Shown piece after piece: positions 44,367 to 51,076 of a stretch of 64,000 bases of DNA (the stretch's first letter is position 1; each line of letters begins with the position of its first letter). Both the position numbers and the translations under genes were made by a program. The notes below the pieces were generated by a model. That model saw nothing but the letters and a program-made list of their open reading frames with translations. It was not told the origin of the DNA and ran no database searches. Source of the DNA: Deltaproteobacteria bacterium. GTDB taxonomy: Bacteria > Desulfobacterota > Desulfarculia > Adiutricales > Adiutricaceae. The stretch is from NCBI GenBank assembly GCA_031265205.1, contig JAISCZ010000064.1, forward strand, positions 1-64,000. Reading direction: 5' to 3'.

Positions 44367-46270
44367 GTGAAGGATATTCAGACAAATTCTCAGTCTTTTG
44401 AAATGATCGTCAAGGGCGATTATGTCTACGCCGACAAGACGGAGAGCGTATACCAATTAGCCGCGAAGGGCGGCGCCTATTTTTTAGCCAGGCCTGGAAA
44501 GTTCGGTAAATCGCTCCTCTTAAACACTTTTGACGCGCTTTTTCGGGAGCCCGCCACGCCAGAAGACGCGCCCTCTAATCTTTTTCAAAATTTATGGATT
44601 GGCCAAAAAGCGACGCCGGAGTACGATTTCACGGATTGCCGTCCCGTCATAAACTTGTCTTTAGCCATGTCTTGCCAAAGTCCCCAGATTCTAAGCGATG
44701 GACTCGCGCGGAAAATTCGCCTCATCGCCGCTTCCTATGGCGTGGAAAGAGATATCTCCACTCCTGACGGATTGTTGGAAGCTCTAATCGTGGATCTTAA
44801 GAAAAAATATAAAAAAACGTGGTATTGCTTATTGACGAATATGACGAGCCCATTAAGGCTAATTTTAAAGATAACGATTTAGCGATAGCCAATCTCATGG
44901 TTCTCAAAGGGTTTTATTCCGCGCTGAAAACCAGCGTAAAAGATCTCCATTTTGTTTTTCTGACCGGAATTACCCGGTACGCTTTATTATGGGGGTCTGG
45001 CGTTCTAAACCATCTTACTGATATAACCCTTAGCGAAGAATACGCGAATATCTGCGGATTCACTTACGGAGAATTTGAAAACTGTTTCGCCGACAGATTT
45101 CCTCAAGCTTTGAAAGCGCTAAAGGAACAAGGATTGCTGGGAAAAAAAGCCACGATTTCAGATTTGCGAAAGGTAATGTTTGACCAATACGACGGTTATA
45201 GCTGGGACGGCAAAACAAGAGTTCTCAATCCCTATTCGATTTTAAATTTTTTTAAATCATATAAATTATTCAATTATTGGGCGGATCTTGAGCCTTCGGC
45301 GTTATTTATTGAGCATGTAATGGCTAAGGATCCTTTGGCTATTGTCGCTGAAAAACTTAAAAATCTGCCTGGAAGGAAAATTAATATGTTAGAGGCGGTC
45401 GGATCTTTAACGCCTATTCCGGCTCTATTCCAGACTGGGTACCTGACCGTGGATAAAGCTACGGATGTCAGAGGGGGTTATTTGTATAGCTTTAAAATAC
45501 CTAATGAGGAAGTAAGGCCGACGTTAGAGGATAATTTTATTTCAAGCGTTGGCCAGTTATTAAAGATGGACATGGACAAGCGAAATAATTATTTTGAGGA
45601 AGCTATTAAGCGCGAAGACGCCGAAAAAATAACGGAAATTATTACCTCTCTTTATCTCGAGTTTCCAGCAATACATCATAAATCAGACGAGTCTTTTTAT
45701 CACGGGTTGCTCTACGCGTTCTTTCGAGCGATACGTGGAATTAAAGTCACCTCTGAACCCGCCAAGGCCGAAGGGACCGCTGACATGGTCCTTGAATTAG
45801 AAAATAATTTTTATGTTATTACTGAACTTAAATATCAGCCGGAAAAGGAGCGTATCCGAAGGACAGCGGAGGTTAAGCGCGAGCTAAACGTCACGCTTGA
45901 GGCGGAAAAAATGGCGTATAAAGGATTGGACGCCATCAGAAATATCGGGTACGAAATTCCGTATAAAAGGGTAGCGAAGAGAATTTTAAAAATGAGCGTC
46001 GGAATCTACGGGAGGGGGCGCGCCCTGGTTTTTTTAGAAAATGACGTTCAGTCAAAAATAATTTTAGAATTGGGAAGGCTTAAAGATTCCGCGCGAAAAG
46101 TTTTCTCCGTAATGGGAACGCTGTTAAATGAAGCGGATATTATTATAAAGGACGCTGAATCTCTTCAAAAAAAGGCGGTAAAACTCAATAGAGACGAAGC
46201 GCTAAAATTAAATATTGAAGTCAAAAGACTTGGCGATGAATTGGAAAAGCTTAAGGCGCGGCGCGGTTGA
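44367..46270 (+). pseudogene. AAA-ATPase-like / PD-(D/E)XK nuclease superfamily gene with internal frameshift
   Basis: Member of the AAA-ATPase_like (PF09820) plus DUF1703 PD-(D/E)XK family, abundant in gut bacteria and of uncertain function. Frame 1 from GTG 44367 (GGAGA 8 nt upstream) has VYADKT and a Walker A variant RPGKFGKSLLLNTF (about 42-55). It reaches KKKYKK at the A-run 44811-44817 and then goes off. The -1 frame resumes exactly there with NVVLLIDEYDEPIKANF (Walker B), LTGITRYA, DGYSWDGKTRVLNPYSIL, the nuclease core GTADMVLELENNFYVITELKY, and a C-terminal coil to 46270. Either one A is missing (mutation or error) or both halves are joined by -1 frameshifting on A-AAA-AAA-C. The first product alone would be 171 residues. 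Low-GC compared with ftsK. Confidence 0.85.
44811..44818 (+). other. A7C slippery heptamer at the frameshift
   Basis: The in-frame context TAT AAA AAA ACG presents A AAA AAA C; a -1 slip after AAA AAA yields AAC GTG GTA, matching the conserved family text N-V-V-L-L-I-D-E-Y-D. This is the classic tandem-Lys slippery geometry, and also a hotspot for indels. Confidence 0.7.
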
Positions 46271-48158
46271 GTCGGCTTAAAACATGTCGCGTGAGCGCGA
46301 CTCCGCGTGAATGAGATACGGACAAATTTTAAAAGCTCGGAGATATTCTCGAAAAATCGCGGCTTTTTTTTACCGTTATTCGCGTATGGCGTCTCGCGCG
46401 GCTTCACGACAATCGGATAATCGGGAGCGTTTAATTTTGGCGATATTACGGCGCGCGCCAGCCTAAAACGCGCGATTTGTTCGCGAAGGTTGAGCTTACC
46501 GGAACGTTCGTCGTTTACGGTTATAAAACCGATAGGCTGATGGGGCGCGGTCAATTCAATTGAAACTCTCCCTTTTATGGAATAAAAGCGTAAACTTTTT
46601 TGCGGTCGCGATTTTCCCCGATAAATACTCAATATCAGCGTTTGTCTGATGAATAATATAATTTTCGTCTAATATCCCTAAAGCTTATAAGTTTTTGTAA
46701 TTTCTTTATTATAATTTTAGGGTTAAATAATATAATCACCGTATCGCGGCGATAAATTAATGAAAACGCCGCTCTTTAAGAGTGGTTGAACGAGGCGTTT
46801 TCTAGCGCGACCAGGCTTCGGTCCTCCCTCGAGGCTTCCCTGGGGTCCTCGCGCCGAAAACTCTTTTCGGGTGGAGGCCGCAGGTCTCCGGTAAGGGGAA
46901 TATTTTTGGCGGACGTCGCCACAAAGTTTGTGGCGACGTTTAAAAGGATTTGTGGCGACGGGCGCTGGAAGGCGCGAGACCGCGCTTTGGGGCGTACGCG
47001 CGCGCCGGCGGCGTGGGCGGAGGAAAGAGGTGGGTCATCCTCCCCAAAGGATTTGGAGGCGTTTTATTTTCGCGTGTCAACCATCAAAATAGGTCTGGAG
47101 AAGGCGATAGTCTCTTTTAAGGGACGCTCTCCGCCGCCCTCAGGAAAGATAACCCAAGAGGGCGCTCCTCGGAAGCCTTCCAGTGGATTTTCCGTGGCTT
47201 CAATTTTCCGCCTTGGCCTACGCTTTATCCTTTTGGGTTTTTCCCGAGATTTTTCCGCCACGTAAAGGCCTAAATGGACCGCCTAAATAAAGCTAATTTA
47301 ATATTCTTATAAATGCCGTCTTAAGCGATATGTCAGGCGATAGTTTTAAATAAAGGCTTTCCGCCGCCATTTAATGAAGCTAGCTAACCTAAATTTTTTC
47401 TATTAATTATTGTTGTAGTTTTTCATTAGCTCTATTTTTCAATTTTTCCTTCGCGTATTATCTAGTGGTTTTTACCCCTATATTTATCTCTATCGAGACT
47501 TAGCGATGAGGGCAAATTTCGCGCGGTTTAATTATTCTAAAAACACCCCTTAAGTATAGTAGAGGCGAGAGTTTTTTTTAAGGAAGACTCTCCGGCGCCC
47601 TCTGGGAGGCCTGGCCGCTCGCGGGCTTTCCCCACCATTTTTGGGGGGTAGTTTTCCCGTGGCTCCGCTCTCCAATTTAGACCTTTGTCTTTTCCTTCGG
47701 GGGCTTTTCTCCCGAATTTTCCCCTTGGGAGACTCCCCAACGGATAGCCAAATTATGTCCGGTCAATTTTGTAAATTCGCCCCTCAAGCGTTAGAGGGAC
47801 GCCCACGCGCGCTCGACCGTCCGCTTCTCTCGCGCGAGCCTCTTGATTAGCGCGAACCATTGACGCGCGGCTAGCCGCCGATTGTCGCGGCGCCTTCTCG
47901 GAAAGCGCCTTTTTTTCCCGCGCCCAGTTTGCGGCGCGGCGCCTCGGCGCGAGCTTTGGGCGCGGCGGCCAAGCGTCTTCGCGGCTCGTTTAGACCAAAA
48001 TTTTACCTTGTTTTCGCGCGAGGATACCTCAAGGCCCCTCGCGAATGGCCGGAAAGCCCCTCCCCGCCAAGCCTTAGGAGGGATTTTACCCGCGTTTTAA
48101 GTTGACGCTTGCCGTCTTGGCGCCTTTGGCGCCGCCTCTCTCCTTGATAGGAGCGTAT
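46271..48158. other. Decayed accessory spacer
   Basis: About 1.9 kb with alternating AT-rich (46640-46790, 47270-47560) and G/C-rich segments. A minus-strand frame at 46290-46632 gives fairly protein-like sequence (SIKGRVSIELTAPHQP, QIARFRLARAVIS) but no identity, and its stop lies inside the neighbouring AAA-ATPase-like gene. Two diverged repeats occur at about 47095-47258 and 47565-47730. No intact gene is supported. Confidence 0.5.
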
Positions 48159-50741
48159 ATGAGTCTCGATTTTCTTTTGGACGGCCTCCTCGTTTACGGC
48201 GCGCCGCGAAGCTTCCAATTTTTCCTCCTTCTCCTTTTAGCTTCCCTCCTCGCGAGGCTTTTGGAACAATACGTCGCGCTCGCCTTAAATTCCGCGCGCG
48301 TCCCGTGGGCGCGCGAAGGCGCTCCAGAGCCCCGCGCGAGGCGCCACAAGGGCCTTTTCCGCGCTCTTTTCGCGCCATTTTTCGCCCGCTTTTCTTCCCC
48401 CTTCCGCCGCTCTCCGCGCTCGCTTCGCCTGACTCCTTCCGCGCTTGCGGACGGAGAAGGACAACCCTCTATCCCTTCGCGGCGGGCGCCGGCCTCCCGG
48501 CTGACGCCGCGGGAATTATCCCCGGACGGGACCTCCGGCGCCAGAGGCGCCGCGCTATTTCTTAACGGCGCGCTCTTAAGCGGAAACCCCGCTTCCCCCG
48601 CTATTGGCGCCCTTTGGCTTGAGGCCAGCGCCCTTTCCAGTCTTCGTCCGGCGAGCCTGACGCCGCGCGCGCTCGGCGCGGGCGCCCCGTTGACCCTCGG
48701 CGCGCCCTTATTGACGCGGCCCGCGAGCGGAGCGGAAATTTGGGAAAAGCGCGCGTGGAGTCTTCCCGCTTTTTGGGAAGAGGGCGACGCCCTCGCGGAA
48801 GGCGCGGATCTTTCCCGCGACGCCCCGAGCGACTCGCCAAGGGTCTTTAACTCCCGCGCCTTTCTTGGAGGAAGCTCTCTGGGAGAGAGCTCGCGGAGCG
48901 CGGAGGGCTCGCGGCGCGACTCTATCCTTTTCCGCGAAGAGGCGTTTCCGCCTCTTCCGGCCTTGGCGCCTTTCCCGCGCGCGGGCGCGCCGTTTTCCGC
49001 CCGCGCGCGGGAAAACGCGCGCTTCCCGGAAACGCCGTCGCGCGTCGCTCCTGACCCGGAAAACAGGCCAGCCCCCTTTTTGAGCCTGGCCCCCTCGGTC
49101 TCCAGAGAGAAGGAAGCGTCTTGTGGCCTCCTGGGGCTAATCCGGGAACGGCTCGCAAGCGAGGGAGTCGACCTCAATAATCTGGGCCTCAGTCCCCTCA
49201 AAATGGCCGGGGCCCAAACGGGACAGGCCCTTTTGGAACTGGTCCGGCGGGCCGTTTCCGACTCCAATCCCTCGCCCCACCCCAAAGAGGACGCCCCGGC
49301 GCTTCCAAGCCCGCCCCAGCGGGAGGACTTTGCGGCGGCGGGCCTCGCGTGGGATAAACTCCAGCGGGAGAGCGCTTTCTGGAGAACTTTAAAAGTTAGC
49401 CCCGCGCTCTCCTCCTGGCGGAAAGGTTTTTCCCCGGAAGAACTGGACGCTATTTTCGCGGGCTTGGAGAGCCTGGCGCTCGAAAAAATGGAGCGAGAAC
49501 ACGCGCTCGCGAATAAGCTCCATCCCCGTTTTCTCCTCGCGAGCGACCCCGCCCGCGCGGAGGAGCGGCGGTTAATTCAAGAGAAAGCCGAGAAGATCCT
49601 CGCCGGGCGCGCTAACTCTTTGACTCTCTTTCCTTCCCTGGACGCCGAAGCGCTCCCGCTCCAGGGCCCCGTCCTGGCCTCCGTCTGCCACGTCGCGGGC
49701 GCTAACCCCGAAAATAGCGAAAATAACGCCGACCGCGCGCTTCTCTTTTTGGAGGCGAACGGAAAAACGCCGCTCGGGTATCTGGATCTCGGGCCCGCGC
49801 CGGCGAGCCTGAAGCGGGTTTTGGGCGCGATAGGCCGCTTTAGCCGTGAGCGCGATCGCGTCAAGGTCCTTCTCGCGGGAGCGGAGTATTTTGACGGCCG
49901 CAAAAAGCTCATGGTCAAAGAGACGCCCGTTAGCCAGAAAGACGGGTGGATGGAAAGCTTTCTCCGCGCGCGGCTCGCCGCGGGGAGTTCGCCCCTCAAG
50001 GGCGGCGCGCCGATAGCCTTGCCCGCGCGGAGCGGCGAATGGGGCCGGCTCGTGGCCTTTTATTCCCCCGGCGTGGGAAAGGAGCGCCAAACGGCGCTCC
50101 GGGAAACTTTGTCGCGGATTTTAAAGGAGCAAAAAAGATTCTGGGGCGAAAAGGCCGACGAGAAGGCGCGCGCTTTCTTTCAGGCGACGGTCCGGCGCCA
50201 CCGGCGCCGGACCGGGCTTAAAGTCTTGGGGAGCTTATTTGAGGAGTCCCGCGCGCCCGGGGGCGAGCTCGTCTGGAAAATCGCGGCGGAAAAGCGAGCG
50301 CTCGCGGAAAGCGTTTTTGACTTTACCGTCCTCCGGGCCGCCGTTAGCGCCAAGGTCATCGGAGACGCGGAACTCCGCCGCCTTTACCGGCGCCGTCAGG
50401 AGATTTCTCGGGAGATTGCCTCTCTCGCGGGGCCGCGCGACTTTAACCTCGAGCTCTGGCTGAAATTCTTTGGGGAGTCCTGGCGCGCTTCCCCCGCGTC
50501 CGCGCGGGAGAAGGCGCCTCGCGGGGAGAACGCGCCGCGCGCGGAAGCCGCTTTCCAAGAGGAAAGCGCGCCTGATGGGAAAGGCGGGCCCGTGGGCGCG
50601 CCCCTCGGGCCCCCGCGCGAGGATTTTCCCGCTGGCTCTTTCCTGTGGGAGAGGCTCTACGAGCTTTTGGCTTCCCAGAAAGCGCGGGAGGAGCGCCCGC
50701 CGCTCGCTTCCCTCGCGGAGCCAAGTAAACCCACGCCTTGA
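48159..50741 (+). CDS. Membrane-anchored protein with a degenerate IS1634-like transposase domain (tentative)
   Basis: An 860-residue protein from ATG 48159 (TAGGAG 5 nt upstream). An N-terminal hydrophobic helix (about 17-35, SFQFFLLLLLASLLARLL) is followed by about 300 residues of Ser/Ala/Arg/Pro-rich low-complexity sequence. A more ordered region begins near 320. By eye, residues about 480-750 follow the order of the DDE domain of IS1634-type transposases: RALLFLEANGKTPLGYLDLGP, VKVLLAGAEYFDG, GRLVAFYSPGVGKERQTAL, GELVWKI with ESVFDFTVLRAAV, and ELRRLYRRRQEISREI. The expected catalytic Asp in ADRG is lost (AGAE), and the first Asp and last Glu also seem missing. Codon use is native, so this would be an exapted, inactive relative. 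The homology is inference. Confidence 0.5.
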   Translation: MSLDFLLDGLLVYGAPRSFQFFLLLLLASLLARLLEQYVALALNSARVPWAREGAPEPRARRHKGLFRALFAPFFARFSSPFRRSPRSLRLTPSALADGEGQPSIPSRRAPASRLTPRELSPDGTSGARGAALFLNGALLSGNPASPAIGALWLEASALSSLRPASLTPRALGAGAPLTLGAPLLTRPASGAEIWEKRAWSLPAFWEEGDALAEGADLSRDAPSDSPRVFNSRAFLGGSSLGESSRSAEGSRRDSILFREEAFPPLPALAPFPRAGAPFSARARENARFPETPSRVAPDPENRPAPFLSLAPSVSREKEASCGLLGLIRERLASEGVDLNNLGLSPLKMAGAQTGQALLELVRRAVSDSNPSPHPKEDAPALPSPPQREDFAAAGLAWDKLQRESAFWRTLKVSPALSSWRKGFSPEELDAIFAGLESLALEKMEREHALANKLHPRFLLASDPARAEERRLIQEKAEKILAGRANSLTLFPSLDAEALPLQGPVLASVCHVAGANPENSENNADRALLFLEANGKTPLGYLDLGPAPASLKRVLGAIGRFSRERDRVKVLLAGAEYFDGRKKLMVKETPVSQKDGWMESFLRARLAAGSSPLKGGAPIALPARSGEWGRLVAFYSPGVGKERQTALRETLSRILKEQKRFWGEKADEKARAFFQATVRRHRRRTGLKVLGSLFEESRAPGGELVWKIAAEKRALAESVFDFTVLRAAVSAKVIGDAELRRLYRRRQEISREIASLAGPRDFNLELWLKFFGESWRASPASAREKAPRGENAPRAEAAFQEESAPDGKGGPVGAPLGPPREDFPAGSFLWERLYELLASQKAREERPPLASLAEPSKPTP

Positions 50742-51076
50742 AGCCCCGAGGCCTTCCGCGCGCCTTTCCTCGCCCCGCCGCTATTAGGCCGCCGCCAGGG
50801 GAGGGCTCCCTTCAAAATTTAAAAGGCCTTTCCCAGGGCGAGCCCAGGGAGGGGGGATTTAAGCGCCTTAAAACCCCAAGCGCGCGGCGCCACGCCGGAG
50901 GCGCGCTCTTTTTGAGCCCATGGGGGAAGGGGCCGCGTCCGCGGCGCGCCCGCCAGGGGGACCCAAGGGGACCCCTGGGTGAATCGGCCACCCAAAAGCG
51001 CGCGCTTTGGCGCGCGCCGACGGGAGCGCCCCAATTCCCGGCGATTCCCGGCGCGGCGAGGCGCAGGGGGAGGCCA
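50742..51076. other. Convergent spacer
   Basis: 335 nt between the convergent 860-residue gene and tex. G/C-rich, no gene; it holds the probable tex terminator. Confidence 0.5.
50994..51017 (-). terminator. Probable tex terminator
   Basis: GCGCGCGC (50998-51005), 4-nt loop, GCGCGCGC (51010-51017), followed on the minus strand by TTTT (A-run 50994-50997). It lies about 60 nt past the tex stop. The T-tract is short. Confidence 0.55.

What the first reader, a model, noticed from the sequence alone, without database searches (positions are those of the whole stretch)
48159..50741. Possible exapted, catalytically dead IS1634-like transposase fused to a membrane anchor
The C-terminal half follows the segment order of IS1634-type DDE transposases, most clearly GRLVAFYSPGVGKERQTAL and ESVFDFTVLRAAV then ELRRLYRRRQEISREI. 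The catalytic acids appear replaced (AGAE where ADRG is expected). The protein has a long low-complexity linker and an N-terminal membrane helix. Membrane-tethered domestication of a transposase fold would be new.
Basis: inference. Interest (0 to 1): 0.6.

Follow-up and report, generated by a model that had tools for sequence, protein, structure and literature searches.

The report
Orphan gene family in secretion-system regulon
The gene belongs to a small family found so far only in this bacterium. It encodes a predicted membrane-anchored protein, and its DNA control element is otherwise found only in front of the genes of a type IVB secretion and DNA-transfer machine, so it is probably cargo or an accessory of that machine; whether it descends from a disabled transposase is possible but unproven.

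Summary
The ORF is real (48159-50741, 860 aa): one predicted N-terminal membrane helix, a near-neutrally evolving Ala/Pro/Ser/Arg-rich linker, a core under purifying selection (omega 0.41-0.55) and a conserved C-terminal peptide. It has no Pfam, NCBIfam, PHROG or PDB match. At least four further copies (50-64% identical, some split at contig ends) lie scattered in its own genome; none was found in 59 relatives or the public collections searched.

The transposase reading is only partly supported. The core's best profile match to IS1634 is weak (hhalign P 0.014; 0 of 300 column shuffles as good). A low-confidence model gives mostly RNase-H-like structural neighbours, but two fairer decoy tests were negative.

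New finding: a 29-bp element, GTTTAATTNTNNNAAANNNNCCCCTTAAG, lies upstream of all five copies with an intact 5' end. Its only other places in the 4.57-Mb genome are upstream of two type IVB (Dot/Icm-Tra) operons and a MobV relaxase gene pair, always in the gene's orientation. The family is therefore best read as a T4BSS/conjugation regulon member, most likely a translocated substrate or membrane-tethered accessory.

The parts
47526..47554 (+). 29-bp regulon element GTTTAATTATTCTAAAAACACCCCTTAAG, 604 bp before the start codon
   Evidence: Exact match to the consensus of 12 sites; 13 sites genome-wide with up to 3 mismatches, 0 for the reversed control pattern; the only match in the window, 0.02 expected.
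47760..47788 (+). degenerate second copy of the element
   Evidence: PWM score 5.4 against 54-58 for true sites; other family members carry one or two intact copies.
47526..48158 (+). long upstream leader conserved between family members (about 70% identical DNA to the C33 copy)
48159..50741 (+). the gene, 860 aa
   Evidence: three further near-complete copies (60-64% aa identity) and additional 5' or 3' fragments at contig ends in the same genome
48159..48293 (+). N-terminal segment with one predicted membrane helix (residues 1-45); no K/R before it and 12 K/R against 4 D/E in residues 41-100, so the C-terminal side is predicted cytoplasmic
   Evidence: topology is inference from charge
48294..49127 (+). 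low-complexity Ala/Pro/Ser/Arg-rich linker (residues 46-323), near-neutral (omega 0.77-1.09)
49128..50498 (+). conserved core (residues 324-780), omega 0.41-0.55; candidate RNase-H-like unit about residues 505-580 and IS1634-like C-terminal block about 629-752
49875..49883 (+). Ala573-Gly574-Ala575 at the position of the second catalytic Asp (same in all four copies that cover it)
50406..50408 (+). Ser750 at the position of the catalytic Glu (Y743-x2-R746-x3-S750); Ser in all five copies that cover it
50634..50714 (+). conserved C-terminal peptide GSFLxERLYELLASQ...ER (69-85% identical) after a variable stretch (31-62%); candidate type IV translocation signal
   Evidence: signal function is inference
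50742..50911 (+). 3' non-coding DNA still homologous to the C92 and C139 copies

Best explanation
The gene is one of a small, dispersed, fast-evolving family that belongs to the regulon of a type IVB (Dot/Icm-Tra-like) secretion/conjugation system. Shown by sequence: the shared 29-bp element, its genome-wide restriction to this family plus T4BSS and relaxase genes, the architecture, and purifying selection concentrated on the core. Inferred: the element is a regulator binding site that switches on the machine together with its clients; the protein sits in the inner membrane by its N-terminal helix with linker and core in the cytoplasm; and it is a client of the system, most likely a protein substrate (effector-like, recognised through its conserved C-terminal peptide and translocated after a membrane intermediate) or, less likely, a tethered accessory that docks DNA or protein to the channel. 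The core may be an RNase-H-like, possibly IS1634-derived, domain without a full catalytic triad, and so would bind nucleic acid or a partner rather than cut.
For: 13 sites in 4.57 Mb (10 perfect), 0 with the reversed pattern, all oriented toward the downstream gene; upstream of C186 (this gene), C33, C34, C56, C92 and of C103, C90, C51. C103: DotG (NF033900, 1.4e-54), DotI (PF11393), DotB (TIGR02524, 2.6e-69), DotM; C90: DotH (PF12293, 3.5e-43), DotI, DotA/TraY (2.1e-94), TraI/DotC (PF16932), DotM, ArdC-like; C51: MobV relaxase (5.1e-19). The element is not enriched in 36 related genomes, which also lack the family. Core omega 0.41-0.55 against linker about 0.8-1.1. C-terminal 27 aa conserved behind a variable stretch. 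Precedent: Legionella effectors share PmrA/CpxR regulatory elements and carry C-terminal signals (PMC2701608); about one third of T4SS effectors have TM domains, the more hydrophobic ones passing through an inner-membrane intermediate (PMC12981334).
Against: The regulon is inferred from DNA only; no expression data and no regulator identified. For this family the element lies about 365-760 bp before the start codon, far for a classical activator site. The system has a relaxase and ArdC-like genes and may only transfer DNA. N-terminal membrane anchors are unusual for effectors; no clear E-block was seen; no translocation test was possible. Copies are not adjacent to T4BSS genes. All sequence is from one assembly in 187 contigs (85% complete).
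Confidence: 0.5

Rival explanations
1. One reading: a domesticated, catalytically dead IS1634 transposase whose RNase-H-like core is tethered to the membrane, acting as a DNA-binding protein (for example a competitor of active IS1634 elements or a chromosome tether). As an account of the origin of the core it is compatible with regulon membership.
For: hhalign in-register score 27.6, P 0.014; segment 600-790 alone P 0.007. As single sequences the copies rank 2nd, 5th and 7th of 172 genes of the genome; 1st is a true IS1634 relative, 3rd, 4th and 6th are unrelated genes with short matches of 24-45 columns against about 100. The D2 block and the E3 block place best, among all positions, at W541 and W738, in the right order. 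Family-only AF2 model: strands 505-512, 526-533, 537-546, helix 551-564, strand 570-572, and most of the top 50 Foldseek neighbours are RNase-H-like. The genome holds 7 intact IS1634-superfamily proteins with a broken triad.
Against: No hit to NF033559 or DDE_Tnp_1; D2 segment alone not significant; clade-consistency and block-chain tests no better than decoys; pLDDT 38-43, best Foldseek E 0.11.
Confidence: 0.35
2. A structural or coupling component of the T4BSS/conjugation machine (DNA or substrate docking factor) rather than cargo.
For: Shared control element; predicted inner-membrane anchor with a cytoplasmic domain, as in coupling-complex proteins such as DotM.
Against: At least 5 divergent dispersed copies outside the operons; no profile similarity to any protein of the two operons (best hhalign 22.6); absent from all related genomes searched.
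Confidence: 0.2
3. The whole unit (leader, gene, 3' flank) is a mobile or non-autonomous element, and the 29-bp motif is part of its end.
For: Homology extends into both flanks; copies dispersed and often at contig ends.
Against: The motif also precedes unrelated T4BSS and relaxase genes without the rest of the unit; copies only 50-64% identical; no terminal inverted repeats found; the core shows purifying selection.
Confidence: 0.07
4. Spurious or decaying ORF in GC-rich DNA.
For: GC-rich sequence with long antisense ORFs; linker nearly neutral.
Against: Frame open in all long copies; core omega 0.41-0.55; conserved element upstream.
Confidence: 0.03

Closest known systems
Dot/Icm effectors of Legionella and Coxiella sharing PmrA or CpxR elements (PMC2701608)
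   Same: dispersed, taxonomically restricted genes sharing a regulatory element; conserved C-terminal peptide; TM segment, as in about one third of T4SS effectors (PMC12981334)
   Different: the element is a different sequence and lies much further upstream; N-terminal anchor; the T4BSS here is associated with a relaxase; no translocation data
IS1634-family transposases (NF033559; PMC2266710)
   Same: weak in-register similarity of the core; Y-x2-R of the C1 motif kept; D2-E3 spacing about 175 residues against 168 alignment columns
   Different: D2 and E3 replaced; added membrane helix, 280-aa linker and C-terminal peptide; not recognised by the family models; no terminal repeats
IncI/Tra (type IVB) conjugation systems
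   Same: two operons with DotG/TraO, DotI, DotB/TraJ, DotA/TraY, TraI/DotC, DotM homologues under the same element
   Different: this family has no counterpart detected in either operon
Kib T4BSS of Pseudomonas putida IsoF (bacterial killing, PMC9519443)
   Same: shows that T4BSS cargo can target bacteria as well as eukaryotes
   Different: Kib effector and immunity gene are encoded in the T4BSS island; no immunity-like partner is conserved beside this family

Membership tests
IS1634-family transposase | recognised by NF033559 / DDE_Tnp_1 | tested here: not met
   No match at E=10; not among 41 NF033559 matches in the genome
IS1634-family transposase | DDE catalytic triad | tested here: not met
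   D2 position Ala573/575, E3 position Ser750 in every copy that covers them; D495 could be D1 but the alignment is ambiguous
IS1634-family transposase | RNase-H-like fold | tested here: inconclusive
   AF2 pLDDT 42.8 and 38.5; topology and Foldseek neighbours compatible, best E 0.11
IS1634-family transposase | terminal inverted repeats around the gene | tested here: not met
   No flanking terminal inverted repeats among the repeats listed; homologous flanks end without clear termini; target duplications were not examined
T4BSS regulon member | shares the control element with T4BSS operons and few other genes | tested here: met
T4BSS effector | C-terminal translocation signal | tested here: inconclusive
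   Conserved C-terminal 27 aa but no clear E-block (signal described in PMC3096851)
T4BSS effector | translocation by the T4BSS | not testable with these tools
   needs an experiment
T4BSS core component | encoded in the operon and similar to a Dot/Icm/Tra component | tested here: not met
   dispersed genes; no similarity to operon proteins

The most novel reading that the evidence does not exclude
A transposase fold that lost its catalytic acids was fused to a membrane anchor and recruited, in several copies, into the regulon of a type IVB secretion/conjugation system, where it works as a non-cutting nucleic-acid-binding substrate or docking factor.
Probability: 0.25. Interest if true: 0.8.

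Novelty: new variant of a known kind. Interest (0 to 1): 0.5.

Why it matters
It turns an orphan gene into a testable client of a secretion/conjugation machine in an uncultured lineage, gives a 29-bp element for mining the rest of that regulon, and shows how a control element can suggest function where protein homology fails. If the transposase origin also holds, it would be a case of a dead DDE fold recruited to a type IV secretion system.

Tried and rejected
Homology searches with the whole protein and the core profile in Pfam, NCBIfam, PHROGs, PDB, plasmids, phages, viral and genome contigs, and 59 relatives: nothing. Two marginal profile hits outside the family (C91 in the own genome; G007) were CobB-like proteins, taken as chance. 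AF2 of the core and of residues 478-792: low confidence. hhalign to L034-type and clade-wise IS1634 profiles: scores at background, though several matches lie on the expected diagonal. Collinearity over 8 clade profiles: 4 of 8 consistent for the core profile, but five ordinary genes of 98 do as well or better. Block-chain test: at the decoy median. A first run of the clade test timed out. A link to the AAA-ATPase_like genes near several copies was rejected as unspecific, since the genome has 124 matches to that family. Rfam: none. T4BSS operon proteins as homologues of the core: none.

Full report
What was checked. The ORF at 48159-50741 (+) is real, 860 aa, with the quoted segments at the quoted places. 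It has one hydrophobic N-terminal helix, an Ala/Pro/Ser/Arg-rich stretch to about residue 323, a conserved core (324-780), a variable stretch and a conserved C-terminal peptide. No library of protein families recognises it (the only sub-threshold hits, to NuoK at E 0.06-0.17 by one member, are taken to reflect a hydrophobic helix).

The family. The window's own genome (187 contigs, 4.57 Mb) holds near-complete copies on C56 (64%), C92 (60%) and C33 (62%), a 5' part on C34, C-terminal parts on C139 and C18, and a fragment on C136 preceded in the same frame by unrelated sequence. C33, C139 and C18 share 119 identical bases at their contig ends, so some fragments are parts of one copy; five loci have an intact 5' end (C186, C56, C92, C33, C34). 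None was found in 59 relatives, 36 family genomes by profile, genome contigs, viral contigs, phages or plasmids. Nei-Gojobori omega is 0.41-0.55 in the core and 0.77-1.09 in the linker: the core is kept, the linker drifts. DNA similarity extends about 630 bp upstream and about 170 bp downstream of the gene.

Is it a transposase? The genome has 41 NF033559 matches, the window gene not among them. A profile of four copies of the core aligned to a 29-sequence IS1634 profile gives 27.6, P 0.014, exceeding 300 column shuffles (maximum 21.2) and aligning RLVAFYSP, FDFTVLR and LYRRRQEISREI with the corresponding IS1634 blocks. Segment 600-790 alone gives P 0.007. Used as single sequences among 172 genes of the same genome, the copies rank 2nd, 5th and 7th; the first is a true IS1634 relative, and the unrelated genes between them match over only 24-45 columns. 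An ungapped scan places the D2 block best at W541 and the E3 block best at W738, so the second Asp falls on Ala573/575 and the Glu on Ser750; AGA is invariant in the four copies covering D2 and Ser in the five covering E3. Against this, the D2 segment alone is not significant, deeper or clade profiles give background scores, and two stricter collinearity tests with natural decoys do not single the protein out. AF2 on family sequences only is poor (pLDDT 42.8 and 38.5), yet the second model has the strand-strand-strand-helix-strand order of an RNase H core, and by my reading of the descriptions most of its top 50 PDB neighbours are RNase-H-like or share that core (ROK proteins, Argonaute, RNase H1, SPT6, TEFM, HIV RT, uS11), best E 0.11.

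A by-product: intact IS1634-superfamily proteins with a broken triad are common here, 21 of 108 full-length sequences from this bacterial family, seven of them in this genome, including C165 with 'AQLGAEYYS' where an active relative has 'AILDAGYYT'.

The upstream element. Searching the leader against the genome showed that a short part recurs on contigs that lack the gene. Aligned, these give GTTTAATTNTNNNAAANNNNCCCCTTAAG. With up to 3 mismatches it occurs 13 times in the genome, 10 perfectly; the pattern read backwards occurs never. In 36 related genomes only five isolated 3-mismatch matches were found, as many as for the reversed control. Every site points at a downstream gene: this gene and its paralogues on C33 (2 sites), C34, C56 (2) and C92; and C103 (2), C90 (3) and C51 (1). 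C103 begins an operon with DotG, DotI, DotB and DotM homologues; C90 one with DotH, DotI, DotA/TraY, TraI/DotC and DotM followed by an ArdC-like gene; C51 holds a 591-aa protein without family match that by eye resembles the next gene, a MobV relaxase with an HxDExxPHxH motif. Tetranucleotide profiles of these contigs correlate with the window at 0.965-0.981, like other contigs of the assembly, which is compatible with one organism.

How it most likely works (inference from here on). The element is probably bound by a regulator that switches on the T4BSS together with its clients; part of it is close to a TTTAA-N5-TTAAA dyad. The protein is predicted to sit in the inner membrane with core and tail in the cytoplasm. 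Scattered, divergent, lineage-restricted paralogues that share a control element with the secretion operons, with a drifting linker and a conserved C-terminal peptide, resemble Dot/Icm effectors, for which shared PmrA/CpxR elements and C-terminal signals are documented (PMC2701608, PMC3096851), as are TM-containing effectors that pass through an inner-membrane intermediate (PMC12981334). A docking or accessory role in DNA transfer is the main alternative. T4BSS cargo can also target bacteria (PMC9519443), but no conserved immunity-like neighbour was seen.

Limits. Regulon membership rests on DNA alone. The genome is incomplete and fragmented. The function, fold and origin of the core are not settled. 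Organism: a bacterium whose TrmFO is 66% identical to that of a Deltaproteobacteria MAG; I did not identify it further.

Noticed in passing
G000 C165:796-2208 (L139), C100 (L138), C41 (L141), C33:15539-17089 (L034), C159 (L112/L134), C177 (L109), C108 (L022): Seven intact full-length IS1634-superfamily proteins in the window's genome lack one or more residues of the DDE triad; in the wider family sample 21 of 108 full-length sequences do.
   Followed up: partly
L190, L176, L172, L175, L131: A set of similar IS1634 relatives from five genomes of the family (NTNF/NPKF ... FDKGNNS-like motifs) mostly lack the first catalytic Asp, which may point to a conserved non-transposing protein.
   Followed up: no
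G000 C103:36600-56400 (L236) and C90:46500-65400 (L237): Two type IVB secretion/conjugation operons in the same genome, each preceded by two or three copies of the 29-bp element; both carry DotI and DotM homologues.
   Followed up: partly
G000 C51, L238:15459-19214: A MobV relaxase gene preceded by a gene for a same-sized protein without any family match that looks like a degenerate copy of it, under the same 29-bp element.
   Followed up: no
window 44367-46270: AAA-ATPase_like (PF09820) gene split over two overlapping frames, a likely frameshift; the genome has 124 matches to this family.
   Followed up: no
window 47115, 47345, 47576: Three direct repeats at 230-231 bp spacing in the leader; in other loci copies of the 29-bp element are spaced about 240-480 bp.
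   Followed up: partly
L015:9588-10463 (G000 C136): A fragment of the family (from residue 216) is preceded in the same open frame by unrelated sequence, suggesting a truncated or fused copy at a contig end.
   Followed up: no
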